A stretch of DNA of 64,000 nucleotides from Fragilariopsis cylindrus CCMP1102 (lineage: Eukaryota > Bacillariophyta > Bacillariophyceae > Bacillariales > Bacillariaceae). A program made the position numbers and the translations under genes. This document shows positions 3,070-53,579 of the stretch, piece after piece (position 1 is the first letter of the stretch; every line of letters begins with the position of its first letter). The notes beneath the pieces were generated by a model. That model saw only the letters and a program-made list of their open reading frames with translations. It had not been told where the DNA came from and ran no database searches. The stretch is from contig FMBT01000302.1 of the NCBI GenBank assembly GCA_900095095.1, forward strand, positions 372,001 through 436,000, written 5' to 3'.

Positions 3070-5160
3070 TTAGTCTTTTCCAAGTGTCTGATCCATAAAT
3101 GCATTTAGTTCAATAATGCTACCAGTTTTTAATAAAAAATCTACCCATACGTCATTGGCCGCAGGATCATCAGAATTCACATCATCATCACTATTTTTCA
3201 TCTCGTCCGATGTGGTGTCATCGATAGTTATTCTCTCATGCTTTTCATGTTCATTACCATAATCGACACTCTTATTGCTGTCGAGGGGTCCATTAAGGTC
3301 ATCAAGATCGTCGCCGTCGACACCATCGTTGATATCTAACGATTGCGCCGTTGTCTCAGTAGTAGTAGTTTTGGTTGCTAAAGAAGATGAACAAAAGTCA
3401 CAATCATTGTTGTCGTTGTCGTTGTCGTTCGTTATTATTGTTGCCGAAGGCGAAGGAGTAGTAGCATTATTATTTTTCTTTTGTTGTTTTTTCTTTTTCT
3501 TCTTCTTTCTCTTTTTCGGCTGCTTCCCCCCATGATTACTATTATTATTATTGGCAGTACTAAGTTGTTGTTGTTCTTTTTGACAATCTTGTATTAATTC
3601 TTCTAAATCTAATTCTTTTTTCATTTCTTTTTGTTGTCTAATTTGTTTTATTATTGATGGATTAAAACAATCAAAACAATCTGTACAAAAAAAACATACA
3701 ACTAAGTTACTACCATCTGCCTCACCTGTTACACCACGAGTTATTAAATTTTCTCTTGCTTTTATTTTAGATGGACAACGAACTTCTGTACCAAACAAAT
3801 CACAATATCGTCTTGAATAGATTGCTCTACAACCCTTACAATGTATATAATTATATTCCATTAGTCGTACAATTTTTTCATCAGCAGTAACACCAGCAGC
3901 AGATGATGAGTTGATTAAATTACTAGTAATTTGTGTTGATAGTTTAATATTACGTTGATATGCTTTTTCATATCCATTAAACAAATGACGATTTTCATTA
4001 TTTTTATACATATCATTTTGATTTTGATCTTGATTTTCCCAATTACTATTATTACCATTTACACGTCTATAATCCCAACTACTATTACCACAATCATCAC
4101 CACTATGACGATTACTAATAAAACTATTTTGTCGACGCCATGTCGAATAAAACCAAAATATTTGTGTACTACATATTTCATCAATTTCTTTTAGTGAATT
4201 TAATATTGACAATGAAAATTGGATTTTTATTATTAATTCTGTTTTTGTTTCCATTCTTTTCATCCACATGCCAACCGATCGTACTAGTAAATAAATTTCA
4301 TTATTATCACCATTATTATTATTACCTTTACTTTGTTCATCACGTTCCCTTCGTTGTTTATTTAGTATATTAACTTTTTCATGTATACAAGATATACGAT
4401 TTTTTATGTCATCAATATCATGATTTAATTTATTAATTTTTGTATTGTATTCATTACTAAGTTTTTTAATATTTGTACCACTAGTAGTAACCGAAAATAA
4501 ATATGCTAATGGATGAAATTCAATAACACATCGCCTTGTGATTGACATTGCTTCTGTTGTTAATAATGCATCACCATTTCTATTCCTCCATGTAAATAAT
4601 GTTGATTCCATTGGTATTTTTTCTTTCCCATCTTGTGATGATCGTCCTGATGATATTATCATTGTTGGTGGTGATGTTATAATATTATTTGTATTTGAAT
4701 CTGAATTTGAATTTGAATTTTCATTGTCATTGTCATAATTTGCTTCTGGTTCTATTTTTTCTGTCTCTTTTTCTGTCTCATTTTCATCACTACTACTTTC
4801 GTGATTATTTTGATTATTCCGGATGACATTGTTGTTATTATCGTCGATAGGGATACTGTAATTGTCATTGTCTTCATTATTATTGTTATAATTCCTTTTC
4901 TTTGTTGCAGTACAATATGATACTGTTCCATCATGATGCCGATTTGTTATTGTTGTCCTACCGGTAGTAGCCGTCATCTTACCTTCGTCATTATTTTTGT
5001 TGTTTTCGACAAATTTATCATTACTTGAAGGATCATCAGTAGCAGCATCATCATCCTTGTTGTTCCTATGCTGACGAGGCAGTCCACTATTATTACCGAT
5101 GTAATGCTGTTGAGTACTATCACAACGACCACCACCACGCAGCAAGGTTGTAACTGTCAT
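3070..5160 (-). CDS. Unrecognised coiled-coil / CxxC...CxxC protein, paralogue of 6691-9869
   Basis: About 696 residues from the ATG at 5160; an ATG further upstream at 5280 would add 40 residues of less convincing sequence. The N-terminal third is Asn/Asp/Ser/Glu-rich and disordered. A conserved core follows: a HPLAY motif, a coiled coil (KINKLNHDIDDIKNRI), a WMKRMETKTEL helix ending in WRRQN, a YQRNIKLSTQI helix, then HCKGC and VVCFFCTDCFDC, which could bind zinc. The tail is acidic with a long Lys tract. The same ordered motifs occur in the divergent neighbour at 6691-9869, so the two form a pair of distant paralogues. I do not recognise the family. Nuclear location is only suggested by the basic tract. 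Confident as a gene, function unknown. Confidence 0.8.
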   Translation of the reverse strand: MTVTTLLRGGGRCDSTQQHYIGNNSGLPRQHRNNKDDDAATDDPSSNDKFVENNKNNDEGKMTATTGRTTITNRHHDGTVSYCTATKKRNYNNNNEDNDNYSIPIDDNNNNVIRNNQNNHESSSDENETEKETEKIEPEANYDNDNENSNSNSDSNTNNIITSPPTMIISSGRSSQDGKEKIPMESTLFTWRNRNGDALLTTEAMSITRRCVIEFHPLAYLFSVTTSGTNIKKLSNEYNTKINKLNHDIDDIKNRISCIHEKVNILNKQRRERDEQSKGNNNNGDNNEIYLLVRSVGMWMKRMETKTELIIKIQFSLSILNSLKEIDEICSTQIFWFYSTWRRQNSFISNRHSGDDCGNSSWDYRRVNGNNSNWENQDQNQNDMYKNNENRHLFNGYEKAYQRNIKLSTQITSNLINSSSAAGVTADEKIVRLMEYNYIHCKGCRAIYSRRYCDLFGTEVRCPSKIKARENLITRGVTGEADGSNLVVCFFCTDCFDCFNPSIIKQIRQQKEMKKELDLEELIQDCQKEQQQLSTANNNNSNHGGKQPKKRKKKKKKKQQKKNNNATTPSPSATIITNDNDNDNNDCDFCSSSLATKTTTTETTAQSLDINDGVDGDDLDDLNGPLDSNKSVDYGNEHEKHERITIDDTTSDEMKNSDDDVNSDDPAANDVWVDFLLKTGSIIELNAFMDQTLGKD

Positions 5161-5280
5161 TTGATTTGATTTGATTCGATTCGTTTCGTTTTGTGTTCGT
5201 ACGTCCTTTATCTTTCCACGTGAATGGGGAATACAGTACAGTACAATGCCATGCAATGAAGATAGAATTAGAAAAGGCAA

Positions 5281-6690
5281 ACGCCAAATAAATAGCGTTA
5301 GCTAGTGCTCGTACGTACGTACAATTCGTTTGCTGTTTGTGTTTCTTCTTCTTTTCCAAAAATCTTTCAGCGAACGTAAACAAAACAATCGACTTGACTT
5401 GCTGTCACGTTGAATGTGTTGACTCGGATGAGATTGGTTCAGCGAAGCGATACAACAAGATCTATATTGACTTTGTTATGTAACGAGCTCTCGCTAGCTT
5501 GATTGATAGTATGGAAGGTATTATGTGAAAAGATATTGGTAAGGGAAGTACATGTGCAGCCATGCATACCTCTTTGTTCTTCCGTCTATATAAGGAACGG
5601 GGGGGAGGGGAGGGAAACGACAAACTTGACAGTAGTCTAGTCGTAGGGGAAGAATTGTATCTCTTGCTCTTTTGATGACTGGGTTCTCTTTATTGCTGGT
5701 GCCGTTTGTACTAGTGATGCGCTTCCTTGGGTCGATTTGTAAATTGTGTGTTGCTTACTGTATGGCTCTGGTGTGCTGTGTTGTCCTATGTTCAGTTTTG
5801 CGGGCCGTCAAAAAAAGTTTGTTACAGTACTGTACTTTACTAATAAAATTAATTGTTGTGAGCTGAGGTTACTTTTGTCAATCGATCAATAAAAAAATGA
5901 TAAAAGCATTCTTCTACGATACGTACTGTAGAATTGATATTATTTAGAGAAAATCATTTTTTTTGACGCGACTACGATCTAGGGTTATGATTGATTGGTG
6001 GACAAAAGGACAGACGTCAAGCTATTAATCACAAATAGTATGTGTACTTACTACATGTACCAGACATACCTTTACATACCTTCTAAATACCTGTGCATAC
6101 GTATACATACCTTTACATACCTATACATATGTATTCATACATATAGGAGCATTTCAACATATTAAAAGTAAATGTTCGCCTGGCTACGCGAGAAGACGCG
6201 GGTAAATTTTTTAAATTCAAAAAGGAATAAGTAAATAATTACTTACTTATTACAATAGGCAATCACTTAGTCTGATACAAAAATACCGTTCACACCGGCA
6301 AGCTAGCACAATCACACATCTTCCATTTTTGAATTCGTCGAGGGAATTCGGCTTTGCTTCCTTTCCGTCTCATTATTTCCATATATCGATTAAATTTGCG
6401 CGCTTTTTTTACTCTGTAGAGAGTAAGAGAAGAATTTTGTAATTTCGGAAATTTGAAGGTTATCGCTCTTCATAACGCAGTATCTCTGCAATGTATTGCC
6501 CTTTTTTGAGTCAATGCAATCCCAATTAGGATGCTGAGTTTTGTTTCGCGAAGGAAAAAAGAGCACAAACCAGTACAGTAGTACAGTAGAATAAATGGTG
6601 CACAACTTTATAATCCAATCCAATCCAATGCAACTACAAAACAAACAGTAAATGCACTTATTGTATTGTTATAAAACATAAACATCAGCC
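5281..6690. other. Divergent intergenic region between the two paralogues
   Basis: No convincing gene. A TATA-like tatataagg at about 5585 precedes a short hydrophobic ORF (5672-5866, 64 residues) that I do not trust. Bases 6057-6143 hold a degenerate tandem of tacatacct-type units. The region presumably contains the promoters of both flanking genes. Confidence 0.4.
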
Positions 6691-9600
6691 ATGAATCAAT
6701 CTTCATCATCGTTGCCGCGAAGGGTGCAACGGCAACGGAAACAACAACAGCAGCAAGAGCAACTTGAACTTGAACAACAGCAGCAACTTGAACAACAACA
6801 TCAGCAGCAACTTGAACAGCAGCAGCAGCAACCGCAGCCGCAACGGAAACAACAACAGCGACAACGACAACCGGCTTCCCAGCAACAACTTGAACAACAT
6901 CAACAACAGCAACTTGAACAGCAGCAACTTGAACAACAGCCGCAACAGCAGCAACTTGAACAGCAACTTGAACAACAACAGCAACCGCGACAACCGGCTT
7001 CCCAGCAACTTGAACAGCAACAGCAACAACAGCAACAGCAACAACAACATGTGGTTGTACCATTTGAATTTATTACTAGTCCTACTACCGGTAGTACTAT
7101 TCATCCATTAGTTTATTGTTTTCATGTGGAAGAACGTGTACGTACATTAGAAAAATTCATTCAACAGGAACTTCAACCAAAAGTTTTACGGTTACAAGAT
7201 GAAAATGATTGGATTGATCAACGTACAAGTTCAACAAGTAGTTCAAATAGTAGTAGTAGTAGTAGTAAACTCAACAAACTCAAATACAAACAAATTCAAA
7301 TACAAAGATTGAAACATCAAGCATGGTTACATAAGAAAACAATAAAACGAAATGAATTACATCAAATACAATCGACATTCGAATTAGCATTAGATATATA
7401 TAAAATATCGAATATATTCAATCCAAATATATTACTTCTTACTGTATTATGGCAACGTAATCAAGAAACACAATCGATAAAGAATCCTACTAGTACTAGT
7501 ACTACTACTCCTACTGCAGGCGATTACGATGATAATGACTACATGAGCAGTATAAAGAAAGACAAAGACAATAGTCGTCGTCACCGTAGTAATAATCGTA
7601 ATCGTAATACTAAAAATGAAACTGATCCACATCTACAATTACTATCACGAGAATATCATTATGCATATACAGAAAATTTAAGACTATCAAAATCAATTCA
7701 AGAACGATTAGTAGGAATGAAAATGAAAGTGAAGACATCAACAACAACAGTAAAAACAAGAGATAATGGAAAAACTTGCAGTAAAGTTTCTGCTGCGAGT
7801 AGTTCGAGTACGAATGATGCTGCTGCTACCTCGGCCTCGCCGCCACCGTACGCCACAATCGTTTCTTCATTGATAGAATATTGTAAAGATTTTTGTATCT
7901 GTAATACATGTAAGGGGATGTTTCATAATGATTATTACAAAGCTCTTATTATTCGTAATAATGATGTTCCAAAAAGGAGGAGGAGGAACAGGAGGAAAGC
8001 ACAATCACATATAGTTGTAGTCATTGTTGGAATTCTAATGATGCGCGTGAGACACAGAAACGGCAGAAACTGCCACCACATACTGCCTTTCAGCAGCAGC
8101 AGCAACAATGGCAACAACAGCAACAACAACAGCAACGGGAACAGCAGCAACGACAGCAGGTGGAAAAACAAGATACGCTATCATCATCAACCACAACACC
8201 TACACCTACACCTACAACCGTTATGATTCCCGAGAAGATCTCATCGCCGATAGAAGAAGAGAAGAAACGGAAGCTCACCATCAAAAACAACAACAGCAAC
8301 AATAAGGAGAATATACAGCTCCAGCTACAACCAACAACGAATACGATCAAGGCTGATAATACTACTATTACTACTACTACTATTACTACTACTAGAGGTA
8401 TGAATAGCAAGAATACTACAAGTATGAGTAAGAATGCTTTATTTATGGGTGCTCGATATAGGGTAAGAAAGAATATTCTTCAAAAGCGAATGGCAGAAGC
8501 AGCAGCGAAGATGACAACTTCGACGGACGAACAATCCGCACCTACACGTAATGATGCTGATGCTGATGCTGATGCTGATGCTGATGCTGATATTAATATC
8601 AGCAATATCAGCAACGAAGGCATTCGACGATCATCGATAACATCTGCATCTGCATGCACGTCCGTGTCCACATCTGAATTTGTATATACAGGGAATGATG
8701 ATGCGGATACTTGTACTACTATAAGTATCGACAACGAAAACGAAGTACAGATTCGACAACCGACGAATTCTCCACTTCCTCCTGTTTCTACTACCACAAG
8801 TATTGTTCCCAATGCTACTCCAATCACAAGAAGTAGAAATGATAGTTGGAGTAGTTGTAGCTCATTGAAATTGATCGGTACAAACCCTATTGTAGAATCT
8901 GAACATCAAAGGGATATGTCCCTTCGTTCTTCATTTCGAAGTACATGTGCTTCGGTGATTGACAATGTTGTTGACGACCACAACGGTGATAACAACAAGT
9001 CATCAAAGAAGTCTGGTCGAACCAACACCAACACTACTACTGTTATATTTGGATCATCAACATCATCGATTTGTAGTAACTCAATTGCAGAATGTAACTC
9101 AATTGAAGAATCTTATCTTCGTCCTCCTTTAGGTGCTACTTCGGCGCGATTGAAGGCGAAAGCAAATGATGGCGACGGACGCAAGTCTTCTCAAATCATC
9201 AGAGAAGAAAAAGCCAGTAGTTCAAAGAGGGGTGATAGTTGGACTAGGTTTGGTTCATCATCGTCATCAATTTGTAGTACATCCATTATTGCAGAATATC
9301 GCGCTACCGAAGGGTATCATGAACTTCCTCCTTCGGGTCCTACCACTACTACTCCTTCTTCTTCGACGAGGCGATCCAAGTGGAAGACGATAGATGATGA
9401 CGAAGACAATAATAAGTCATCTCAAATCAAAAAAGAAAAATCTAACTCATCAAGAAAAAAAGGCGATAGTTGGAGTAGGTTTGGTTCATCTGAATCATCA
9501 ATTTGCACTACGCCGTCCGTTGCAGAATCTGAATCCATGCATAGTACTAGATATATTAGTGGTATCATGAAGAAGAAAAGCAAAACTTCATCAAAATCGT

Positions 9601-9869
9601 CATCATCATCGAGATTGTCACCGATAAAAGTTGAACATTTTCCTTTACCGAAAAAGGTCCGATTTCAGTTGCCAGAAGATCATCTTGATAAAAGTGCACA
9701 TTCAAGAGAGACATCATACACCGACGATTCATCTGTGTTAAGTCATAGTCCTTATTCGGTCGACCTCGATACATCCACTGATCTTTACGGCGGCAATGAT
9801 GATTATTTTTGCAAATGTGATTCATTCTTAGATTATCTTGAGAAGAATATTATGAAACAAATCATATAA
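6691..9869 (+). CDS. Unrecognised Gln-rich coiled-coil / CxxC protein with SSxC repeats, frame break near 7971
   Basis: Starts with a poly-Gln region (about residues 5-120) built from LEQQ units. The core matches the 3070-5160 gene: HPLVY, a coiled coil, WLHKKTIKRNEL ending in WQRNQ, YAYTENLRLSKSI and CNTCKG. At the AAAAA run at 7971-7975 the sense frame changes: the next frame reads KKEEEEQEES, then a YSCSHCW motif (the second CxxC, as in the paralogue), another poly-Gln tract and on without a stop to 9869. So 6691-8020 and 7970-9869 are one gene split by a one-base indel. The C-terminal half has at least three copies of a DSW-x-x-FGSSxSSIC-like unit (from about 8838, 9225 and 9463) and a PKKVRFQ segment that fits the PP1-docking RVxF pattern. 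Function unknown. Confidence 0.75.
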
Positions 9870-10152: not shown

Positions 10153-11361
10153 TCATAATCTTATTACTTTCTTCTTTACCATCTCGTTGTTTATCATGCT
10201 TGAGCAGGAAATTCCAACTCCCAGATTATATGTATCATTCAACATATCAGTAGTTTTATTCCATTTCTTTTTTGTTCTGTGCATAATGACAGTAGGAAGA
10301 CCAATCGCTAATACACCAAATGCTGCAACTATTGGAATTGCATATGGTTGTGTAGCAACTAGAACGGCTGCAGGTGCAGTCGTAAGTGCTGTTATTTCCG
10401 TTGTTGCAACAGCCGCACATAAGGCCTGTAACGTACACCATTTGCCTGTCTTGCACCAAACTGCTGCAGTTTCACAATTATTATATGCCCAATGATATGG
10501 CATATCTAATACAGTCACTGAATATTCTTGAAGGAATAGTACTCTTGATAGAACTAATACGGATGGATCACATTCATTACCAGTAGATGTTCCAGGACTA
10601 GGATTTTTAACTAGTTCCCAAAATGTTGCCCTATAGATAACCTTAATCCATCCTGTAACAGGACTAACATAAGTTCTCCAACCACCAGGAGCTGCTTTAT
10701 TGGAATTAAATGGATTACTCAACATATTAGAACCACCTGATGATGTGGATGCTTTTTCATGGAGAGAAATATTTGAAAAATCACTTATACATAACATCCA
10801 TAAATTTTCTACATCATCCCAATATACTTTCATAACAATACCATGATGATGATAAAGAGGAATACCAGCAACTTTATACCATTGATATACATGATCACCA
10901 GGAATAAAGGGACAAAACGAAGGAAAATTTGATGCTGGTGGTTTGTTGGGGTCGGTCGTTGTTTTGATAGAACTTAATTCTATTTCATCGTCGTCTTGCT
11001 GCTTCTCGAGGACCTTCTTCTTCTTCTTGTTGGGAGCCGCCAATGATGATTGACTGCTTTTCATTATTACTGATAATAATGTTGCTGTTGTTTCCGAACA
11101 TATCTTTAATTCATCAATGATCTCTTCCTCGCCTTCCGACAACTCGTCATCATCGCTATGATGATCATCGTCGTCGTATTCTTTAAGTAATTGATCTGTG
11201 GTAGCGGCGACAATTTGTTTCGATTTCTTCATTGTCGTCGTTAATAACTCTCTGATGATCCCCTCCTCACCTTCCGATAGTTCATCATCATCGTCACGGT
11301 CGTAGTCGAAGTTGATTGATACTACCTCGTTAGAATGATTATCTTTCCCAGAAGTTGCCAT
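10153..11361 (-). CDS. LRAT-domain (NlpC/P60-like) protein with acidic N-terminus and membrane segment
   Basis: 402 residues. The LRAT core starts at GDHVYQWYKVAGIPLYHHHG (His about 171-173) and continues to the catalytic-type NNCETAAVWC (Cys about 296). This His...NCE order is diagnostic of LRAT/H-rev107 thiol acyltransferases and phospholipases. A long insertion lies between the two. A C-terminal segment rich in Ala/Val/Ile (about residues 315-365) is likely membrane-associated and is followed by a basic HRTKKKW. The N-terminus has two copies of an acidic DDDELSEGEE-I-I-x-EL unit about 55 residues apart. The expected role is acyl transfer on membrane lipids, inferred from the family only. 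It is convergent with the gene ending at 9869. Confidence 0.8.
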   Translation of the reverse strand: MATSGKDNHSNEVVSINFDYDRDDDDELSEGEEGIIRELLTTTMKKSKQIVAATTDQLLKEYDDDDHHSDDDELSEGEEEIIDELKICSETTATLLSVIMKSSQSSLAAPNKKKKKVLEKQQDDDEIELSSIKTTTDPNKPPASNFPSFCPFIPGDHVYQWYKVAGIPLYHHHGIVMKVYWDDVENLWMLCISDFSNISLHEKASTSSGGSNMLSNPFNSNKAAPGGWRTYVSPVTGWIKVIYRATFWELVKNPSPGTSTGNECDPSVLVLSRVLFLQEYSVTVLDMPYHWAYNNCETAAVWCKTGKWCTLQALCAAVATTEITALTTAPAAVLVATQPYAIPIVAAFGVLAIGLPTVIMHRTKKKWNKTTDMLNDTYNLGVGISCSSMINNEMVKKKVIRL

Positions 11362-27027: not shown

Positions 27028-27865
27028 TTACATCATTTCCGTCCAGGAACCTACATACACCGTACCGTTGTTTCTCGGGAAGAGTAGTGCACGAGGATCA
27101 TCGAGATTTTTCTTGTCAAGATATTCTTCATACTCCATTCGTGGCCGGGTTAGACCCAATTTGTTACGTAATTTTTGTAATGGTATGATAAACTTAGGAT
27201 CATCTCCACGCATAATTTGTTCTCGGATTTTGTTTGCGTATGGTTCATGATATTTCATCAAGATTTTTAGTCGATTGCATTCATTCTTGTGAGTCCCTTC
27301 TTCCCAATGGATCGTCTGGCATTCTTTACTACAATAAAAAGTCAACTTACACCCATTGCAGGTTTTTAAAGTAACCAAATCCGATTCTTGTTCACCACAG
27401 ATATTGCAAATGTTATAGAGGTAATTCTTCCATTCCTTTGCTCCTTCAAGAAATTCCACGTATCTTTCTTCTTCAATGCCGACCCAATTCTTTACCATTT
27501 TATTCCAATACATACACAATGAAGATAATTGACAGGGCATTTCCGAATTTTCGTAACATCGGTTCAACAACAAGGATACAGCAAACGGATGCCCTCGAAT
27601 AGCTCCCTCTAAAAGAAAAGGTAATTCTAAATGGGGCTGACCAATGTTGTATGCGTAATTTATCATGGAAGGAATGCAGCCGTTTTCTGCTCCTTGTTGC
27701 CAGATACCCATAAGAATGTCATTTTTGACAATTGTTTTACTTCCTTCTCCACTTACTTTAACATGATGTCCCCGTTTAATGAAGTCCGATGTTGGAAATC
27801 CATCAGCATCAGTAACCATTCGGCTTGCATGATGTCCAACAGCAGCACGATTTTTATTACTATCA

Positions 27866-27908
<43 letters not shown>

Positions 27909-27932
27909 CATTATCATTATCATTATCATTAC

Positions 27933-27975
<43 letters not shown>

Positions 27976-29139
27976 GTGATTATTACCCGCAACAATTGGA
28001 GATACATTCCTAGATTTCTTGTTCTTCTGGTGTGTCTTATTTTTGCTTGTTGTTTTCTTTGTTTTCGATTTGTGTAGGCCTACACTCCTTGGTTTCTTGG
28101 TCGGTTGTAAAACTTCCGTCCATGAGCCCAATTCGTCAAGCGGATCGGAGTCCTCAAAAACATTTGCTGCTGCGGAATCCGCTTGTAATACGAGTTTCGA
28201 TTGCTTATTTGCGACTGGGTCGATAATATCTAAATTATTAAGTCTTTTTTGATTCATTCGCGACCAGAAGTCCACTGATGAAAACTTTCCGTTATTATTA
28301 CCATCCACGTTATTAATAATGTTATGACCACTGCTACCAGCACTACTATCAGACGCTTTCACCACCGACGCCGATACCTGGTTGTTTTTCTTTCTCTTGG
28401 CTCTTTTCTTTCTTTGGTTTCGTGTCATCATTCTCGACGAGAAGTAAACCGATGAAGACTTTCCGTTATTATTGTCATCCACGTTATTAATGTTATGACC
28501 ACTGCTACCAGCACTACTATCAGACGCTTTCACCACCGACGCCGATACCTGGTTGTTTTTCTTTTTTGTAGCTCTTCCCTTCCTTTGGTTTCGTGACATG
28601 GTGCATTTTTTCTTCCTTTTTTCATCATATGTTTCGTCGTGACTGAGCACTGGCACCGCAACACCGAATGGTTCCATAGCGCGTATTACATCTACATCCA
28701 TATCATTCGTGTTCGCCGACGCTGATATCGACGCCGACGCTGATGCTGATACTGATGCCTGATTCTTTTTATTTTCTACCCTCCCTATTTCATTCTTGTT
28801 ATTTGGTAGTGTCGCGGTGTCGTTACTTTCGTTGTGCTCATCTCTTTCTTTGAGGAGGCTTGCTATTTCGTCAGCATCACATCGCACATCGCGTGCTATC
28901 ATACTGTTCACCCGACTACGCAGATTATCAGGCATTGTCATCAAATCTTTATCGACGAAATACTTCACAGCATCTACATATTGATCAGCAGAAACAGCAC
29001 GGCTATTAGTATTAGTGTTAAGACCGCTAGCACTGGCACTATCACTACTAGACGCCGATGCCGATGCTGATACCGATGCCGATAATGTCTGATTCTTTCT
29101 ATTTTTCCTCCCTCTTTGCTTTTTATTACTTGGTGCCAT
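27028..29139 (-). CDS. MYND zinc-finger protein with Sel1-like helical region and low-complexity N-terminus
   Basis: 703 residues. The C-terminal MYND finger is complete: CNICGEQ, CNGCKLTFYCSKECQ and HWEEGTHKNEC provide the C2-C2-C2-HC ligands. Ahead of it lies a helical part with Sel1-like character (GAENGCIPSMINYAYNIG, LLEGAIRGHPFAVSLLLNRC). The N-terminal 400 residues are Ser/Ala/Asn/Lys-rich with an (Asn-Asp)n tract coded by (cattat)n, and contain a near-exact duplication of about 58 residues (RNQRKxRAxxKKNNQVSAS...). MYND fingers mediate protein-protein contacts; the partner is unknown. The opposite strand shows long poly-Ile and poly-Tyr frames that are artefacts of the repeats. Confidence 0.85.
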
Positions 29140-29869
29140 TTTTAGGTGGTTATAGTGGTACTGTTTCTCACGAAGATTGCTTGCTTTCTTCTTTCGGCCT
29201 TATTGAGTTTCTGTTCTCGTTTATTTGTTGTGTGCACTCTTTTTGTCTCTCTTTAATCTTGCCAAAGAGAAAAAAGAGATTGACCAAAAGTAGAGTCATT
29301 CGATTCTCGCGTGATGACTATAAAGCACTACTAGAACGTGTTATTGCACGCAGCGCGCACGACTGAAACATACCGTTTTGCTCACAAAGCAACCTGGCAT
29401 TAGTACTGCACTGTAGACTTTGTTATACACACAAAGGCCAATAGGACAATAGTTATATGAGTATATACAGTAGCAGACATAAAAACTAGAACATGCCTGG
29501 ACAATAATTCTTGAGATATAATGATACAGTAACCCTATTCATGGGGAAGTACTTACTAGCAAATAATGTATGATGTATGTGTGAAGTGCAGTGAAAGGGG
29601 TTAGATGCCAGCTAGATTACTAGTAGTTTTCAGTTAATCAATTTCCATGTAAAACAATGAGCAGCATTAGAATATAATACTATATGCACCCTTTTGATAG
29701 TGCCTTTACATTCTTTGTATCTTGTTCTGCTTTGGGCATTAAACCATCTTGCTCGTTTCATCAGTACAATGGTATCATACAAACATGAAATAATGGTATA
29801 CCAGCTGTTTTAAATTCTTCTTGTCTTTATAGTAAGTGTTTTGAAAGGAAAACAATGACATCTCTTGCA
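29140..29869. other. Intergenic, upstream of the MYND gene
   Basis: No gene seen. Ordinary AT-rich sequence that begins a 3.6-kb accessory region without intact genes. Confidence 0.35.
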
Positions 29870-33612: not shown

Positions 33613-36231
33613 TTACACCTCCCTTATTGGTCCTTTAACCTCAGCAGGACATAGCTTCAATAGTAAGGCTTTCTTGTGTTCCTCTGGTAATAAGTTATCC
33701 ACGACCGATTGTGGTAACAGCTGGGCCATACTAGCAAACCCTTGCAATTGTTTTACTGCTGCTCTTCCCAGTGCGGTTTTCTCTATTGTTATTTCTTCAT
33801 CACGTAATTCGTGTAGGCGACCATCATCAACGATTGTCCATTCTTTAGTTTCGTGTGCCTTCTTCTCTCGTACGTCTAACCACAGCGCAACTAATCTGTC
33901 TTTCGTACTATCTTTCGCACCCGTTTTTTTCCCAGTGTGATCTTCAATTAAAAGCTTTAATTGTTCACTTGTTATAACCTTTTTGTCATTGAGTGATTCA
34001 TGTGTGTACACGTCGATTCCTTTATCCCTTTTTAGCTCAATCAATTGTTTCACTTTAGCAGCAAGAGCAATATAATTATCGTATTCTTTCTTCTGTTTTT
34101 CAAGCAGTATAATGTCTGCACTTCTCTTCTTCCTTTCGGTTGCAATAAAAAAATCGTCCGAATTAATTACACCACCAGCATTAGCAAAAAACTGTCCACC
34201 CGCAGTAGAAGCCCTCCCAATAGCATCCTGTCTCTCACGTGTGTTTGGTACAGTTACAGCAATCTTCTTTCGATGTGCTGATAATTTTGGTGCGTCTATG
34301 GATAAATGCTTCCCATCGCCACCTAATTGATTAATTTTTGCCACCGCTTCTTTATTTTCTTTTTCAATCTCTATTAATATGGTCGATTGTGGATCGGCGT
34401 CGAGATCAATTGAACCATCCGGACGCAGAACAACTTCGTGCTTTACTTTTGCATCTAACAAGCATGCTCGAGTGAATGGATAGAACCCTAGCTTCTTCCA
34501 TACTTCCTGGTTTCGATCAAACGAAAATGCTTCATCAAACGCGCTTTCTAAATGACACAATACAACACCCTCATTTATATAGTCTCCACCAAATACCAAC
34601 AACGGAATGCTTGTGTGTTTGATAGACGTAGTATGTTGTGTGAGCACTTTCAAATTCGATCGATATATTGATTTAAACATACCATAGTTTTGATCGGTTG
34701 GCTGTGTGATATGAGTAGTATTCGGCACTCCCGGTTTAACATAAATACCTTTTGTTCTCAATCGGGCTAACATTTCTACTTGCGTTCGACCGGGACCACT
34801 ATCGACAATTAGTAACACTCTCTTACCGGGTTTGTCCGCCGCATCCGGGTACAATGGTACAATACAATCTTCCACGTACTTACAGAATTCCTCTACATCC
34901 ATTCCAGCCTTCATATTACAATTAGCTGTCACCCCTCGCTCGGTCACTTCATCGAAACCCCATCTTCCTCGAACTTTTCTCATGTTTTCAAATAAACGCG
35001 TATCAAGTTTTTTAGTTTGTTCTGTTCTTGCTAGACTTCGAACTTGAAAGTGAGGGGGTACCGGATACCCATCCATTGTACTACCACCAATAAACGTGGC
35101 AGCGTAACCACTCTTGTTTGTCCCTTCGGCACCAGTACCGATACGGGTATCAGTAGAACAGTATTCCGTAATCGGACGTCCGCCTGTAAGTTTACTAGTA
35201 CCATCTGTCGTTACTTCGCTCTCGTCTATATTAAGGATCCGTTGAAGTTGACCGTCGAAGAACACCAGTTCACCTTCGACATCTTCTTCAGCAGTAGGCA
35301 AACGAGCAAAACCCAAAACAATTAGTTCTTCTTTCATTTTTTCGAACCATGTATTTATATTATTATAAGTCGACCACACTAATCGTCTCTTCTCCATTTT
35401 GGTATTTGCTGTTGTTACATTAACATCTAATGCAATATCTCGCATTAATCGTTGTGCAAATTTACGTGTCTCTTTTATTCCTAATTGTCTTGCTATCACT
35501 TTGTCAAGAATTTTAATTATCTTTTGTTTGTTTGGCATTGTTGTCCGATTTGCATTTGCAAGTGCAATGTAAGATCGTAGCGCCGAAAGAAGAGCATCCC
35601 GTAATTCACCGTTCACTACACCTTTTCTTCCTCGGCATGGAGGCACCGCTTCAGTTCCTGCCTTCACACGACGGCGCACAGTTGCCTCATTTACGTTTGT
35701 ATCGTTCTTTTTATTAATGTCATTGACAATATTCCTACAACTAATTCGTTGTTTCTTTGGTAACGAACTCTGTGTTTTCCATTCCTTTACAGCCTCAAAA
35801 TACGACTCTTCCTCCTTCTTCTTCCTTTTTGCTGCCTCATAATCATCGGAATTGACTTGGGTTACTGTCCGGCGTGTCTTTGATTTTCTTCTTTTTCTTT
35901 TCTTTTTTTTTGTCGTGGCCGTGGTTACTGTTGTTGTTGTTGTTGTTGCTGTTGTTGTGTCCGTGTCGGTAATTGCTGAGAAGGCACCCGGTGACGCAAT
36001 GTCCACTAAAGACGGAAGCGACGCCTGTGATAATCTCCTTTTTGCTCTGTCCACAGCATGTCGATGCTTATTATTATTGTCGATATCACCTTGTGAAAAT
36101 CCGACTTTTAATAAGGCTATTTTTAGTGTCATCCTTTGACTGGTTACCGCACATATTTGCTCGTCCAATAGCAATGCTCTTGCAGCATGCTCTATCCGTT
36201 GCTTGTATGCGTCACTTGTTGTCTCACTCAT
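33613..36231 (-). CDS. pogo-like DDE transposase
   Basis: 872 residues, uninterrupted. An N-terminal basic, helical region (Lys/Arg tracts near residues 105-120, RNIVNDINKKNDTNVNEATV as a helix-turn-helix candidate) precedes a DDE_1-type catalytic core. The acidic triad fits LNIDES (Asp about 336), LLIVDSGPGR (Asp about 477) and HITQPTDQNYGMFK (Asp about 513), giving a DD35D spacing and the QPxD-x-x-x-FK context typical of pogo, Fot and Tigger elements. The C-terminal 250 residues are Lys/Glu-rich, with SAP-like EQLKLLIEDHTGKKTGAK. It catalyses cut-and-paste transposition of the surrounding element. Domestication is possible, but the TIRs and TA sites argue for a normal transposon. Confidence 0.9.
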   Translation of the reverse strand: MSETTSDAYKQRIEHAARALLLDEQICAVTSQRMTLKIALLKVGFSQGDIDNNNKHRHAVDRAKRRLSQASLPSLVDIASPGAFSAITDTDTTTATTTTTTVTTATTKKKKRKRRKSKTRRTVTQVNSDDYEAAKRKKKEEESYFEAVKEWKTQSSLPKKQRISCRNIVNDINKKNDTNVNEATVRRRVKAGTEAVPPCRGRKGVVNGELRDALLSALRSYIALANANRTTMPNKQKIIKILDKVIARQLGIKETRKFAQRLMRDIALDVNVTTANTKMEKRRLVWSTYNNINTWFEKMKEELIVLGFARLPTAEEDVEGELVFFDGQLQRILNIDESEVTTDGTSKLTGGRPITEYCSTDTRIGTGAEGTNKSGYAATFIGGSTMDGYPVPPHFQVRSLARTEQTKKLDTRLFENMRKVRGRWGFDEVTERGVTANCNMKAGMDVEEFCKYVEDCIVPLYPDAADKPGKRVLLIVDSGPGRTQVEMLARLRTKGIYVKPGVPNTTHITQPTDQNYGMFKSIYRSNLKVLTQHTTSIKHTSIPLLVFGGDYINEGVVLCHLESAFDEAFSFDRNQEVWKKLGFYPFTRACLLDAKVKHEVVLRPDGSIDLDADPQSTILIEIEKENKEAVAKINQLGGDGKHLSIDAPKLSAHRKKIAVTVPNTRERQDAIGRASTAGGQFFANAGGVINSDDFFIATERKKRSADIILLEKQKKEYDNYIALAAKVKQLIELKRDKGIDVYTHESLNDKKVITSEQLKLLIEDHTGKKTGAKDSTKDRLVALWLDVREKKAHETKEWTIVDDGRLHELRDEEITIEKTALGRAAVKQLQGFASMAQLLPQSVVDNLLPEEHKKALLLKLCPAEVKGPIREV

Positions 36232-36749
36232 TGTTTATGATGGAAGGAAACCGCAACAGCATGTATCGATACTATATGTCATTGTGGAACTATTTTCAAA
36301 ATAGTAGTTAACTATTTTCAAAAAATACAGTTGTTATTGCAGTATTGTGGCTGGCTCGTTAATAGAGGAATCAAGTATGGGATGACAGCTTTGTAATCTG
36401 TATTATTTTACGATGAAAAGCCGCATAATGTGCACGATATTCGATTGATTTCAAACCGGATTCTAATCGATGCTCTATTGTAGTTGTTAAATAATTGAAT
36501 TTGAACTTTAATTTTCAACAATAGGGCGACTAGAAAACCATATGTAATTCAACAACTAAAAATAGGATTAACCAATGAAAGACAGTTTCTGAAAGCTGAA
36601 ATCAAATCCAGTCCGAATCGTTAAATATCGTTTCGCTTTTATTAATATCAATTCAATATCGTTTCCTCCGAGTAGAGCTGAGTAGTTTATACTATATTTT
36701 GGGCTCATATCCCGAGCAAAAAAAAATGTCACATTAGTGCCTAAACTTG

Positions 36750-40394: not shown

Positions 40395-41960
40395 TTATGA
40401 TCGTATTGGAACACCATCCATTTCACGAACGAGCTGATAAACTTCCATTAACCCTACTTCGAATATAACACCATTGGAGATATTATTATCACTATCACCA
40501 CAATCATCATCACTTGTACTTTTAATTAGTTCAACTTCTTCTATATCTTTCTTATTATTAACAAGAGGAGGATTATTAAATCCTATTGCAGTATAGGATT
40601 CACCTTTTGTGAAATCATAATTTAATTTTAATCCTGTACCATATCCATTTTTATTTATTCCCATACTTAAAGAATTCAAATTCGATTGTTGAAATGTTTC
40701 CCATAATGCTGCTTCTGTGATTGTATTTGTATCTGTATCTGTATTTGTATATGTATTTGTATCAGGATTATTGTAATTAGAAGTTGTTGACGACGTCGAC
40801 AATGACATCGGCGTCGATGGTGGTAATGATGATGATGGTGGTTTCCACTTCCAACAATCAGCTGTAATTAACTTAGTATTATTATTATTATTATTATCGG
40901 TATCGGTATGTTCGTCTTCGTCGTCATCAACATCAACAATTTCTTCTACTATACGAAATAAGAAACATCGACCATCACCATATACTTTTGACGATGGATG
41001 CCATAATTGTGATGCATACATTCCTATAACTAAACGTTGTTTTTGTTGTTTTTGACTTTGACTTTGTGTATGACAAGTTGATAATACTTCTAATAATAGT
41101 ATAGTATGATGGGAGGATGTTTTTTGTATTTGATTATACAGCATTGTTAATGAACGACCATGTATACTAGTACTATATATTAAATTCATATTCGATGTAT
41201 ATTTTAAACTATATGGTAACCATTCTGCTAGTTTTTTACGTATCTGTTTTGATTTACCTAATACTATTGGTTGTTCGTGTTCTTCAATATGGTAATCTTT
41301 ATCTGCATTGCTATTGTTGTTATCGTACATATACAAATCACTAATACCACCACCAGTACATGCAGTTTCAAATATAAATGGTCGTAATCCAAGAGGATGG
41401 ATTGTCAATAAGGCATCATCGTCCTCGTCCTCGTCATCGTTATCCTTTATCTTATTATTGTTGCTACTAATTTCTAATAATGATGTACTTATTTTATTCC
41501 TATTATTGTTGACGATGCCTTTTTCCTTCCATAATAATCCTTTATTTCGAACAACAACAACAAGTATTATTATTGTCGTCATCAAAATAAAGACGGGACT
41601 ACTTGTACTCCTGCTTGACGATGATGAGAAGAAGAAGGAGAAAAAGGCAGTAGTAGTATCCTTGTTGACGTTTCCACCAGAAAAAATCAATGGTATTACC
41701 AACACGGCGACGATAGCGACGACAACGGCAACGACATGACTATCACCAGCAACCGCAATACCATCAGATGACGGTGATGGCGGCAATAGAAATTTTGCCT
41801 GTAACTCTGTTTTCGTCGTCGTCGTCGTGTTCACGATCTTATCATTATTATTATTAATAGTAGTAGTAGTAGTTTTATCATCTACCAGTAGTCGCTCTTC
41901 TTGTGTTAGTCTTCGTCGTCTTCTTATCAGTCGTCGCTCTCGTTTTTTACTTGACATCAT
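40395..41960 (-). CDS. TLDc-domain membrane protein
   Basis: 521 residues. A short basic N-terminus is followed by two hydrophobic segments (AVVVAIVAVLVIPLIFSG and PVFILMTTIIILVVVV), which suggest two membrane passes. The C-terminal half is a TLDc domain: LAEWLPYSLKYTSNMNLIYS, STSIHGRSLTMLY, LVIGMYASQLWHPSSKVYGD, GRCFLFRI and then GLKLNYDFTKGESYTAIGF and GLMEVYQLV. TLDc proteins are linked to oxidative-stress protection and to V-ATPase regulation in other eukaryotes; the role here is inferred. An Asn/Asp/Thr insertion splits the domain, as is common in this genome. Confidence 0.85.
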   Translation of the reverse strand: MMSSKKRERRLIRRRRRLTQEERLLVDDKTTTTTINNNNDKIVNTTTTTKTELQAKFLLPPSPSSDGIAVAGDSHVVAVVVAIVAVLVIPLIFSGGNVNKDTTTAFFSFFFSSSSSRSTSSPVFILMTTIIILVVVVRNKGLLWKEKGIVNNNRNKISTSLLEISSNNNKIKDNDDEDEDDDALLTIHPLGLRPFIFETACTGGGISDLYMYDNNNSNADKDYHIEEHEQPIVLGKSKQIRKKLAEWLPYSLKYTSNMNLIYSTSIHGRSLTMLYNQIQKTSSHHTILLLEVLSTCHTQSQSQKQQKQRLVIGMYASQLWHPSSKVYGDGRCFLFRIVEEIVDVDDDEDEHTDTDNNNNNNTKLITADCWKWKPPSSSLPPSTPMSLSTSSTTSNYNNPDTNTYTNTDTDTNTITEAALWETFQQSNLNSLSMGINKNGYGTGLKLNYDFTKGESYTAIGFNNPPLVNNKKDIEEVELIKSTSDDDCGDSDNNISNGVIFEVGLMEVYQLVREMDGVPIRS

Positions 41961-42829
41961 CGTCAGTCAGTCAGTGATGCATGTGTGGGTATCATTGGGT
42001 ATCATTGGGTATTACTGTATGTTTGTTGTTTGATTAATGAAATTTTGGATTGATTCATTCGCGTCAAAGATATCTCAACTTGAATCCCGTATAGAAGGGA
42101 TTTCACGGAAAAAGTTTCGAAATTCATTGTTTTGTGTTGAGGAATTACTGAACCTGAATTTTCGTCCGACGTCGATGATGAAGAAACTAAACAACGAAGG
42201 TAATATTAGTCGACTACTAATGAACGATAACGATGTTGTTCATGGTAACAACACGGATACAGACAATCAAATACTGGATGAGAATGAAAAAAGTAAAAAT
42301 ATTTGGAATGTCTACCTGTTGACGTAATATAGAAACGGTGAAAATAAAAGGCACCGATAACATTGAACACGAACTTTCAACAACAACAGCCCAGACATAT
42401 CAATACTGTAAGTACTTTATTATGATAGTCCTCTCCTAATCATATTGGTATGAGTTTATAAACAACAATAGACATACGTGTAGTAAATGATCTGAATAAA
42501 CAACAACCATTCCTCAAAAGTTGCCGGTAGTTGAACAATTTAATGGAACAGAATAACTTCAATTGGCGCACAAATAGTATTTAAAGCATCTTTAACTTTG
42601 TCAAATTACTATTTTTTTGACTATATACAGTTACAATTCAATTATTCATCTCCTATAGTAACATTCCTACCTCTTAACTACCGTTCCTCACCCTAAATTA
42701 ACGAAATCTTTCGATCAAATAATTGTTCCGCCATTTTATATCCTTGATGTAATTCTCGAGTCAATAGTAATTCTTCTTCCATAGTTCACAGCCGCCACAA
42801 TGGTAACAAGCCATTCTTCCTTCCTAACT
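41961..42829. other. Intergenic; short ORFs and a dispersed repeat
   Basis: A plus-strand 96-codon frame at 42037-42327 has no recognisable domain. Bases 42066-42120 (tcaacttgaatcccgta then gaaggga) recur at 43600-43665. On the minus strand 42696-42780 reads MEEELLLTRELHQGYKMAEQ in an open frame and might be an exon of the next gene, but no splice join is obvious. Confidence 0.35.
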
Positions 42830-47755: not shown

Positions 47756-48438
47756 TTATAGTTTACTCCGAGGTAGTGTCGTTGCTACTGTTGCTGATGA
47801 TGTACAATGTCTATGTCGACGACCTGTTACTGCTACTGTTACTGGTGTTGGTATTGATGTTGATGTTGGTGTCAGTTGTTGTTTTTGAGTAGTAGGTTGT
47901 TTTAACAACCATTCTATTATATTTTTTGTAACAGGACCAGGATGATCTTTTCCTTTCAACATCATTAAATCTACTATAGTATCTTGATGACCTGTTTTTG
48001 GAACATAATATTCATCAATAATGATATTACTACTACTAGCAGCAGTACTACTAGCACTATCAGTACTACGACTTCCACCTAAGCATTGTCGTAATATTTT
48101 TGCAGCCTCACCAGTTGATGTGAATGGTACTATATCATCTTCTATACCATGTACTAATAACATACGATTAGGAAAACATGACGATAATAATAATGATTCG
48201 TCCTGTTCATATAACTTTTGTGATAATAGTAATAATAATTCATTTTGTAACACAAATGTTGGTGTATATGTATTAAATGATTTACGATTATAACCACATA
48301 CAGGTTTTAATGGTGATATTTCTTCCACACCACGTCCAGATTCATAATCAAAATGATGGTTTATATTATAGACACCTGATATACCAATAAAGGATGTTAT
48401 AATTTTATTTTTATTTTTACTATTATTAGCATCAAAGC

Positions 48439-48472
<34 letters not shown>

Positions 48473-49396
48473 TTGTTGTAATTGTTGTTTTGCTCTTTCA
48501 ACTAACCATAATAATGATATATGTGCACCAGATGAATGACCCATAACAATTGTACCTAGATGATGTGGTAAATGTAAATCATGACAATCATGATGATTAT
48601 TATCTTCCTTATTATTATTTTGATTTGGAATACTACAACACCATTCCGGATATTCTTTTACTAATTTACAAAATGCTAATTCTAAATCATCTACTTGAGT
48701 TAATATACCACCACGATAACCATTACTACTACTACTATTGTTGCTGTTGTTGTTATTGTTATTGCTATTGGATGGTGGTACACCACATAATGGATAGACA
48801 CGATAACCAATAATTGCCACCGCAAACCCTAATTCTAAAAATGGTATAACAATTAAACGATAAAACCATGGTTGTCCTGATCCCCATGCACCACCATGGA
48901 CAAAAAATATCATACCTCGTCTTTTTACCTTTGAATTTGCATTTGGAAAGAAAACGTCAATGAATTGTGGTGTTGAATTTTCATTTTCACCATAATATAA
49001 TCTTTTACAATTATTCTTTGTTAAAGAAATAAATTCTTTTATAACAGTATTTGGATTGGATATAGCAGCTGTTGGTACAGCAATTGTTGTCACGATTGTA
49101 TCAGCTAATAATTTAAACCCACCACTATCACGAAATGTATGTTGTATTGATAATGGAATTTTTGTACTTAGTAAACGTGTCATTCTTGTCATTTTACGTA
49201 GTATTGGATCAGTATTATATTCAAATGGACTATCACATCTTGGTGCCATTTTTGATAATCGTATTGATTTGGGTGTAACAAGTGTTGTTTCTATTGCTTT
49301 TATTCTTGCATTATGTGTTGTTGTTGTTGTCTCCTTCTTCTTCTTTTCATCGTTACCACTTCCATTCGAAGGAGATGATCTCGTCATCATCGTCAT
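47756..49396 (-). CDS. Alpha/beta hydrolase (esterase/lipase-like)
   Basis: 546 residues with the alpha/beta-hydrolase layout: oxyanion-type FFVHGGAWGSG, IIGYRVYP, the nucleophile elbow GHSSGAH (Ser about 288), the acidic residue in VHGIEDDIVPF and the catalytic His in KTGHQD. It is of the HGGxW carboxylesterase type (hormone-sensitive lipase / BD-FAE group). A poly-Gln insertion (QQQ...) and Asn-rich inserts lie outside the core. The C-terminal tail is disordered and no signal peptide is clear. Substrate unknown; esters are inferred from the family. Confidence 0.85.
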
Positions 49397-50400
49397 AACG
49401 CTATTGAAAGCAGTAATTAAGTATGCTTCCGTAGGACTATTGTAATTTAATCTTTATGTTAGACTCTGTTTTGTCTTTTGTGCTTTTGTGCTTTCAATCA
49501 CATCATCCTCATCATCAGCGGCAAAATCGAAATCGTAGATAGAGAAAGTAAAGATTTTTATCGGAAGTTTGTTTAATAAAAAGCAGTTCGCACGAACTCT
49601 CGCCTCCCCCTCTAAAAAAAGTTCGACCTAAAAAAAGAAATTATAAATAAAATGAAATTTCCACATCCCCCCGTTTTTTATTTTTGTAGTTACCATCGTA
49701 CGGTATTATAGTACACCCCCCTGCCCTTTTGACTCACCGTCAAGACACGACAAACTATTTGTTTGGCACATCAGCCATGCTTGCGAGTGTGCTTTATTCT
49801 CTGTGTACTTTAAATGAAGTATGCTGATTGACTAAGAAGTGCAAGCTAGGCCAAGCCAAGACAAGGCGTCACAGGGGATCATCATCAGAACTTGTGTTGA
49901 ATGAAATGGGGAGAGGAATGTTCAGTTAAAAGAACAACTTGTATATTGTCCATCAGAAAAAAGTGATACACGTGGCAGTCATATAGATTTTATAAAAAAA
50001 TTGAGAACCTGACGAGGCAGGAATCGGTAGGAAGAGTGGGAACAATATTAAAACCCAGAAACATAATATCAGTGTGGGAAGGGACGAAAAACAACACATA
50101 ATTGTCACCTTTTTCTCCCATAATAGCAGTACATGCGATGCATGACTTGTCTATGATTTATATCGAACCAACCACTAGCATTAATGCAGAAGTAAGTTGA
50201 TCATGGAATGATTCATGCATCATCCCAATCGAAAAATATAGTCTCTCTAAACTCCACTGTTATGTCTATATCATTATTCTTGCAATGTGTCAATGATCCG
50301 GGTGGTATTATAGTCTCTTTTATAAGAACTATGGATTTTATTTTTAATCTTTATCTCATGCTATTTAATATTTACCTATTTTTATATAACTTCATCAATA
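49397..50400. other. Intergenic spacer
   Basis: About 1 kb without a supported gene. It has a C/T-rich patch near 49600 and AT-rich stretches. A short plus-strand frame (50208-50423) is unconvincing. Confidence 0.35.
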
Positions 50401-52362: not shown

Positions 52363-53579
52363 CGACCAAAAATGAAGTCCCTATAATGATCTTGATGGGT
52401 GTATACGGCAAAACTACACTACACTACTACTCCTCTGTTTTTCTTCAATGGAATGGATGATGATAAAATCCTACACCAGTATTAGTTTTAAGTTACTGGG
52501 TTTGACTTGACTTGACGTGACTTCGACTTGACTTGACTTGACACAAGCTACCAAGTACTGTAATGACTACCTGTCTGCCTGCCTAAGCTACGAACGAACA
52601 GCGCCTATAATAAAGGTATTCGATTTCGATTTCGATTTCGATTTCGTTTTCAGTCAAAGAAGAAAACAAAGAGAAAAAAAGATCTCACGATCGAAGAAAA
52701 GACCTGTGATACCGACACACAAAAATGATGTTCTTGAATGAAGCAATGCAATTGTTATCACTCTACTACTGGGCAAATAATGAATACAAGTAATCTTCTG
52801 TTCTTCTTACTTCTGCTCAACTCATCTTGTTTCGAATGGGGAAGAATGAATGAAAAAGTGTCAACAAAATCGATTTCAATTCCTTCGTATTCGTTTGTTG
52901 TTGAGTTCTTGTTCGTTTTGTTACAATATATATGCTTTTATTTTTACTATTTTTTAATTTTTGAATGTCTTTGTCGAGTCCCGTACGAATCGAAAATATA
53001 GGATGGTCCAGAGAAGAGTGAGTGATGGGAATAGAGAAGAATTAAGCAAAAAACGAATTGTAGTGTTAGTTGTCATCACCGTTAGCTGACGACGTCCTAT
53101 TCGCCATACTATTTATACTACAATCGGATGATTCGGCTGTTACAAACTTCCTTACTTTATGTGTTTAGTTTGGTGTTTGGTGTCGATAAGAATTGATGAT
53201 TGATGATTATTGATTACTTACCTGTCCAGGTTTTTACTGTACCCGTCCTGTTAAGCGATTATAGCGCGGTAGTACTGTATACTTATACTGCTGTGAGTGA
53301 TTTTGGGATTTCTAATGTATGTTAATACCGTAGGTAGTGTTCGGAAGTAGGGCCTACATCATAAACCTTCGTAACCACTGGATTAAATTTTCATTACACG
53401 CTACGGTACGAGTACGCACAGCCAGTTGAAATTTTTCTTTGACCAATCATATTAAAGCTTAATAATATTAATTAGATTCTTCAAGTTAGTTGTCAGCAGT
53501 ACATTCGGCATGAATTGCCGATGGGGAAATTGTACCCCCCACAGTTGTGCTGTAGTGTCATTTAAAAAAAAAACTTATC
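52363..53579. other. Intergenic with microsatellites and a dispersed repeat
   Basis: (ttgac)n lies near 52503-52545 and (gatttc)n near 52620-52645. Bases 52977-53025 match 32625-32672. No gene seen. Confidence 0.5.

What the first reader, a model, noticed from the sequence alone, without database searches (positions are those of the whole stretch)
3070..9869. Unrecognised gene family: two divergent paralogues with HPLxY, coiled coil, WxRQ and paired CxxC
The genes at 3070-5160 (minus) and 6691-9869 (plus) share an ordered set of motifs: HPL[AV]Y; a coiled coil; W[LM].K...K.EL..IQ ending in W[QR]R[NQ]; a YxxNxxLSxxI helix; CxxC; and a second CxxC about 50 residues later. Outside these the sequences are low-complexity and unrelated. 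I know of no named family with this architecture. The second protein also has a PP1-docking-like KVRF and a repeated DSWxxFGSS unit.
Basis: partly seen in the sequence, partly recalled or inferred. Interest (0 to 1): 0.75.

Follow-up and report, generated by a model that had tools for sequence, protein, structure and literature searches.

The report
Unnamed coiled-coil zinc protein family
Two neighbouring genes of a polar sea-ice diatom belong to a real but unnamed protein family with at least five genes in that genome, which probably binds zinc, pairs through coiled coils and works as an adaptor, most likely in the nucleus.

Summary
The window is Fragilariopsis cylindrus: gene 2's deposited product, FRACYDRAFT_238299, matches it over 963 of 963 residues (frame break near 7974 crossed, intron 8463-8750 removed). 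Genes 1 and 2 share HPLxY, two long helices with conserved tryptophans, a YxxN helix and two CxxC pairs. A family profile built without gene 2 gives it 46 bits, from the helical part; none of 999 scored local shuffles of its core reaches the core's score. The cysteine module is more weakly supported (1 of 1000 cysteine-fixed shuffles does as well).

The family is larger than two: gene 1 has 15 database relatives without functional names, and the genome holds at least three more members (C522, C164, C56). Gene 1 and those three also carry a lysine-rich stretch and a C-terminal motif, ND.(W)VD[FY]LL.TGSII.LN.[YF]M, that gene 2 lacks.

No Pfam, NCBIfam or PDB-sequence match is significant. AlphaFold supports only the helices; Foldseek finds nothing significant. 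The family is separate from the genome's MYND set. The PP1 motif is not significant.

Best mechanism (inferred): a zinc-binding, coiled-coil nuclear adaptor docking a partner through its C-terminal motif. Family near certain; mechanism about 38%.

The parts
3070..5160 (-). Gene 1, coding sequence of 696 aa, uninterrupted
   Evidence: Open frame. Database relatives P0002 and P0003 begin with MTVTTLLRGGG as gene 1 does.
4501..4515 (-). Gene 1 HPLAY motif; H, P and Y are invariant in the five-member core alignment
4333..4470 (-). Gene 1 first long helix (coiled coil)
   Evidence: AlphaFold H23-71 in the core model, block means up to 93 pLDDT; coordinates
4120..4302 (-). Gene 1 second long helix, from NEIYLL through WMKR to WRRQ
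   Evidence: AlphaFold H79-124 and H127-140; W298 and W340 invariant in 14 sequences
3898..3981 (-). Gene 1 third helix, YEKAYQRNIKLS
   Evidence: below 50 pLDDT in the gene 1 core model, but 77-87 in the P0006 model
3658..3861 (-). Gene 1 putative zinc module: CKGC (3829-3840), LFG, CTDC (3676-3687)
   Evidence: Invariant cysteines in the alignments. AlphaFold gives a short beta hairpin around CKGC at low confidence in this model. Zinc binding is inferred.
3472..3525 (-). Gene 1 lysine-rich stretch, possible nuclear signal
   Evidence: Lysines at this place are invariant in the 14 aligned sequences; a lysine block also lies between the second CxxC and the C-terminal motif in C522, C164 and C56
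3082..3159 (-). Gene 1 C-terminal motif NDVWVDFLLKTGSIIELNAFMDQTL
   Evidence: Most conserved stretch against 11 divergent relatives, mean identity 0.76; shared with C522, C56/C138 and C164
6691..9869 (+). Gene 2, FRACYDRAFT_238299, deposited as 963 aa; frame break near 7974 in this assembly; intron 8463-8750 in the deposited model
6730..7050 (+). Gene 2 glutamine-rich N-terminal repeats
   Evidence: Tandem repeat scan and translation
7102..7116 (+). Gene 2 HPLVY motif
7321..7461 (+). Gene 2 second helix, AWLHKKTIKRNEL to WQRN
   Evidence: Profile alignment; coordinates
7654..7698 (+). Gene 2 YHYAYTENLRLSKSI helix
7900..8027 (+). Gene 2 putative zinc module, CNTC (7900-7911) and CSHC (8016-8027), with the frame break between them
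9048..9506 (+). Gene 2 three FGSSxSSIC repeat units (9048-9074, 9249-9275, 9480-9506)
   Evidence: the only other match of this tail in the genome has E 0.77
9654..9665 (+). Gene 2 KVRF, a PP1-docking-like match of no statistical weight
   Evidence: 401 of 1000 shuffles hold such a motif

Best explanation
Both genes belong to one unnamed protein family, found so far only in F. cylindrus and in sequences without an organism name. Shown by sequence: HPxxY, two long helices bearing conserved tryptophans, a third YxxN helix and two CxxC pairs; in four of the five F. cylindrus genes also a lysine-rich stretch and a near-invariant C-terminal motif. Inferred: the two helices fold into an antiparallel hairpin that dimerises or forms a platform; the four cysteines hold one zinc ion in a small treble-clef or ribbon-like module that contacts a nucleic acid or another protein; the lysine block brings the protein into the nucleus; and the C-terminal motif is a helical docking site for a partner common to the family. 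Gene 2 is the most diverged copy: it lacks the C-terminal motif and carries a serine-rich tail with FGSSxSSIC repeats that look like phosphorylation or binding sites.
For: Family: 13 relatives of gene 1 and two more, P0016 and the 129-aa piece P0017. Own-genome members on C522, C164 and C56, whose second allele appears split across C138 and C435. Leave-one-out profile tests: gene 2, C164, C522 and C56 cores scored 38.4, 58.2, 119.0 and 69.4 bits, and 0 of 999, 996, 999 and 986 scored shuffles reached these (1000 made for each). In a scan of 3175 open frames of 40 aa or more from the window and overlapping fetched loci, every hit at E < 0.001 lies in one of the five genes; the best other frame had E 0.13; four of the five helped to build that profile, gene 2 did not. 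Constraint sits in the motifs: mean identity of 11 divergent relatives to gene 1 is 0.50 in the helices, 0.59 in the third helix plus cysteine module and 0.76 in the C-terminal motif, but 0.06 to 0.20 in the N-terminal tail and linkers. Helices: AlphaFold block means up to 96 pLDDT in P0006 and 93 in gene 1. The first CxxC lies in a short beta hairpin in both models.
Against: Nothing here shows zinc binding, dimerisation, nuclear location or a partner. The cysteine region has low model confidence: about 39 to 52 pLDDT in gene 1, and 75 falling below 50 in P0006; the models' mean pLDDT was 52 and 53. The length between the two CxxC pairs varies from about 30 residues (C164) to about 70 (P0016), which is loose for a zinc finger. 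In gene 2 the cysteine stretch scored only 2.6 bits in the whole-family run, and two alignments did not pair it. Gene 2 lacks the motif on which the docking idea rests: its 60-residue tail scores 2.1 bits, matched or beaten by 6 of the 209 shuffles that scored out of 300 made. In the C56 gene the C-terminal motif lies in another frame than the lysine block in both alleles, so there their union is inferred from order and spacing. Lysine-rich stretches also occur in proteins that are not nuclear.
Confidence: 0.38

Rival explanations
1. A cytoplasmic or ribosome-associated factor: the lysine block binds rRNA or ribosomes and the zinc module RNA, as in some processing enzymes with basic N-terminal blocks (recalled).
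For: The gene 1 profile's weak PDB-sequence matches in the lysine block include methionine aminopeptidase 2 (E 0.34) and N-myristoyltransferase 1 (E 3.2), and the five-member profile weakly touches eL19 (best E 1.3).
Against: None of these matches is significant; better-ranked chance matches in the same lists are p300 (E 0.23) and ribonucleotide reductase (E 0.16). They are probably driven by lysines or helices.
Confidence: 0.2
2. A structural coiled-coil protein of the cytoskeleton or trafficking machinery, whose cysteine module only stabilises the end of the hairpin, much as in bacterial HP0958/CT398-type proteins.
Confidence: 0.25
3. Gene 2 is not a true family member: the resemblance is convergence between low-complexity, helix-rich proteins.
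For: Identity of the gene 2 core to the P0006 core is about 20%, its tree branch is the longest (6.91 changes per column), it lacks the C-terminal motif, and its own protein search found only itself among 7978 scored candidates.
Against: 46.2 bits for the whole protein; 0 of 999 scored local shuffles reached the core's 38.4 bits; zinc module alone reached by 1 of 1000 cysteine-fixed shuffles; same order of six motifs; the gene is the direct divergent neighbour of gene 1.
Confidence: 0.03
4. Gene 2 is a decaying pseudogene because its frame is broken near 7974.
For: The window sequence changes frame there.
Against: The deposited protein reads straight through and is otherwise identical over all 963 residues. 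The C56 member likewise has a break between its helices and its first CxxC that the C435 part of the other allele lacks, which points to indels in this assembly.
Confidence: 0.06

Closest known systems
MYND zinc fingers, the large zinc-binding expansion of F. cylindrus
   Same: Cysteine-rich, many copies in this genome, associated with domains of unknown function (the expansion is described in passages of PMC8991070).
   Different: No Pfam MYND match in any member tested. The genome search listed 149 MYND matches (150 candidates scored, a lower bound), one in this window at 27277-27408, none at the five family genes. Only four cysteines are invariant in the family.
HP0958/CT398-type helical hairpin with C4 zinc ribbon (bacterial; family description recalled)
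   Different: No sequence match seen; only the hairpin was aligned; extra helix, lysine block and C-terminal motif here.
DksA-type coiled coil with zinc finger
   Same: Coiled-coil hairpin plus four-cysteine module (general architecture, recalled); DksA2 appears at rank 50 of the Foldseek list.
   Different: Foldseek E 2.7, 16% identity over 85 columns: no evidence of kinship.

Membership tests
The unnamed family defined here | HPxxY, two helices with conserved W, third helix, two CxxC pairs, in order | tested here: met
   Gene 1 and gene 2
The unnamed family defined here | C-terminal motif ND.(W)VD[FY]LL.TGSII.LN.[YF]M | tested here: inconclusive
   Met in gene 1, C522, C164 and C56/C138 (C164 has DDLVD in place of D.WVD); not met in gene 2. 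So it marks a subgroup, not the whole family.
zf-MYND (PF01753) | Match to the Pfam profile above the curated cut-off | tested here: not met
   No match in genes 1 and 2 or the other members tested; the listed genome-wide MYND hits lie elsewhere
Any Pfam-A family | Whole-protein match above the gathering score | tested here: not met
   Best values: DUF4746 E 0.049 for gene 1, Rubredoxin E 0.12 for the second half of gene 2, none for its first half; best among relatives CysR_MRC2_N E 0.0065, 16.7 bits against a cut-off of 27 (C164)
HP0958/CT398-type C4 zinc-ribbon coiled coils | Sequence profile match | tested here: inconclusive
   Not named among the Pfam matches at E <= 5 of seven core members, but 2 of the 27 families were not shown, and the Pfam entry was not tested by itself
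HP0958/CT398-type C4 zinc-ribbon coiled coils | Hairpin followed directly by a C4 zinc ribbon of the same fold | tested here: inconclusive
PP1 regulatory subunits (RVxF docking) | Docking motif beyond chance | tested here: not met
   401 of 1000 shuffles contain the motif
Zinc-binding proteins in general | Zinc bound by the four cysteines | not testable with these tools
   Needs metal analysis or a structure

The most novel reading that the evidence does not exclude
A diatom-lineage-specific class of zinc-dependent nuclear adaptors, all recruited by one shared partner through the ND.WVD[FY]LL.TGSII.LN.YM tail, that arose alongside the MYND expansion of polar diatoms. Gene 2 would be a derived copy that exchanged the tail for a phosphorylatable repeat domain.
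Probability: 0.25. Interest if true: 0.6.

Novelty: new variant of a known kind. Interest (0 to 1): 0.36.

Why it matters
It turns two uncharacterised genes into a defined family with a testable architecture and a C-terminal motif kept between paralogues whose cores are only 27-34% identical to the gene 1 group's P0006. Such a motif often marks one important partner, which a pull-down could find. F. cylindrus is a model species among polar diatoms (passage of PMC13149256) and is already noted for an unusual load of zinc-binding genes (passage of PMC8991070), so a further, non-MYND, probable zinc family is of some use to that field.

Tried and rejected

Viral and prokaryotic copies: no relative was confirmed in viral contigs (600 pattern stretches for the gene 1 alignment; 99 for P0015) or prokaryote genomes (584 stretches). 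These scans rest on two, six and two short peptide patterns, several of them low-complexity, so they are weak evidence of absence. MYND membership: rejected. PP1 docking: rejected. Gene 2 carrying a worn C-terminal motif: not supported. A DNA pattern for the first CxxC gave 21 matches in the window against 14.8 expected; 9 of 100 shuffles had as many. The family tree has 9 of 15 inner branches open and places the paralogues by long branches, so it is not used for their order. The promoter/terminator scan of the shared 1.5-kb intergenic stretch uses bacterial consensus and says nothing here. Papers: the locus tag of gene 2 is in none of the held papers; the listings (titles and starts of abstracts) showed no description of this family. 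I read only passages of PMC8991070 and PMC13149256.

Limits: the first two protein searches scored only the 7990 and 7978 candidates sharing most words, so relatives of these low-complexity proteins may have been missed; the third scored 3530 candidates and reported no such cut. No metagenome scan was available, so the hosts and neighbours of P0002-P0014, P0016 and P0017 are unknown.

Full report
Where the window lies. The 64-kb window is part of a 67.9-Mb genome in 818 contigs (C307). A protein search with gene 2 returned one deposited protein, P0015, 'hypothetical protein FRACYDRAFT_238299, Fragilariopsis cylindrus CCMP1102'. P0015 equals the window translation over 963 of its 963 residues when a frame break near 7974 is crossed and a 288-base stretch, 8463-8750 with GTAAG...CAG ends, is left out as an intron. 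The host is therefore taken to be F. cylindrus.

The two genes. Gene 1 is one clean frame of 696 aa on the minus strand, 3070-5160. Gene 2 begins at 6691 on the plus strand, so the two are divergent neighbours with about 1.5 kb between them. In this assembly the second CxxC of gene 2 is reached only in another frame, which the deposited protein shows to be the same protein. And its distance from the first CxxC is 39 residues, not about 50.

Are they related? Profile-profile comparison of 14 gene 1-type sequences with the gene 2 core gave probability 69.6, E 4.2e-5, though it did not pair the cysteines. A stronger test used a profile of the gene 1 group plus three further genome members, gene 2 left out. 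The deposited gene 2 protein scored 46.2 bits (E 1.9e-13), all from the helical part (residues 136-363); its cysteine stretch scored 2.6 bits in that run. The trimmed core scored 38.4 bits over the whole sequence, and 0 of 999 scored local shuffles reached that (1000 made, best 11.6). The same leave-one-out test gave 58.2, 119.0 and 69.4 bits for the cores of C164, C522 and C56, with 0 of 996, 999 and 986 scored shuffles reaching them. The cysteine module of gene 2 on its own scored 13.5 bits against a profile of that module: 0 of 1000 plain shuffles and 1 of 1000 with cysteines fixed did as well. Of 3175 open frames of 40 aa or more in the window and the overlapping fetched loci, every one with E < 0.001 lay in a family gene, the best other at E 0.13; the profile was built from all members but gene 2.

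The family is larger than two. Gene 1 has 13 database relatives, and two more were found with a five-member profile, one of them a 129-aa piece: 15 in all. Their sources are labelled ena, jgi or lgn, without organism; two of the first 13 are called only 'hypothetical protein', and none carries a functional name or Pfam domain. In the genome itself, single-protein searches found members on C522 (588-aa frame), C164 (618-aa frame) and C56. The second allele of the C56 gene appears split between the end of C138 (99.4% identical) and the start of C435 (93.4%). So the genome has at least five member genes. A search with a made-up consensus of the C-terminal motif found five places: gene 1, C522, C164, C56 and its allele on C138. 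The C56 gene is seen only in pieces: helices and first CxxC share a frame in C435, second CxxC and lysine block share one in C56, and the C-terminal motif lies in another frame in both C56 and C138; an intron or assembly indels could explain this.

Anatomy. Across the core alignment of the gene 1 group's P0006, C522, C164, C56 and gene 2, the invariant residues are H, P and Y of HPxxY, one glutamate, one tryptophan, one isoleucine and the four cysteines. Gene 1, C522, C164 and C56 also carry a lysine-rich stretch and end in ND.(W)VD[FY]LL.TGSII.LN.[YF]M. Mean identity of 11 divergent relatives to gene 1 is 0.50 in the helices, 0.59 in the third helix plus cysteine module, 0.44 in the following helix and lysine block, and 0.76 in the C-terminal motif, but 0.06, 0.16 and 0.20 in the N-terminal tail and two linkers. 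That pattern is what selection on protein function leaves. Gene 2 lacks the C-terminal motif and instead has a serine-rich tail with three FGSSxSSIC units, whose only other match in the genome has E 0.77.

Known families. No Pfam match reached its cut-off in any member tested, and NCBIfam and PDB-sequence searches gave none at E below 0.001. F. cylindrus is known for a large MYND zinc-finger expansion (passages of PMC8991070). The genome search listed 149 MYND matches, one in this window at 27277-27408, none at the five family genes. The family is thus separate from MYND. No relative was confirmed in viral contigs or prokaryote genomes, by weak pattern scans.

Most likely working. Shown: common descent, conserved cysteines, lysine block and C-terminal motif; predicted with confidence: the long helices. 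Inferred: zinc binding, pairing through the hairpin, nuclear entry, and a shared partner for the C-terminal motif. I rate the whole mechanism at 0.38; rivals are a ribosome- or RNA-associated factor and a structural coiled-coil protein. That gene 2 belongs to the family I rate at 0.97.

Verdict. The finding is real and larger than reported. As a lineage-restricted family without demonstrated function it is of moderate interest; the near-invariant C-terminal motif is its most testable feature.

Noticed in passing
window 27277-27408 (minus), in frame 27031-29199: A MYND zinc finger (E 7.9e-10, 39 bits) in a 723-aa frame: one of 149 MYND matches listed for this genome.
   Followed up: partly
window 33616-36234 (minus): An 873-aa frame with a DDE_1 transposase-type match just above its cut-off (E 6.6e-5, 23 against 22 bits).
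   Followed up: no
G000 C56:175.7-177.3 kb, C138 right end, C435 left end (L005, L006, L031): One family gene seems present as two alleles, one of them cut between two contigs. Its frame breaks sit at different places in the two alleles, except that the C-terminal motif is out of frame with the lysine block in both, so indel errors and perhaps an intron are likely.
   Followed up: partly
protein database: The C522 and C164 products, though within the length limits, were not returned as deposited proteins, and neither was an F. cylindrus-named copy of gene 1: these genes may be missing from or drawn differently in the deposited gene set.
   Followed up: no
window 53556-55142, 40398-41966, 58333-60180, 47759-49453: Frames with SET, TLDc, tyrosyl-DNA phosphodiesterase and BD-FAE matches above cut-off.
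   Followed up: no
window 10153-11361 (minus): A 402-aa frame beside gene 2 with a weak LRAT-like match (E 0.17, below cut-off).
   Followed up: no
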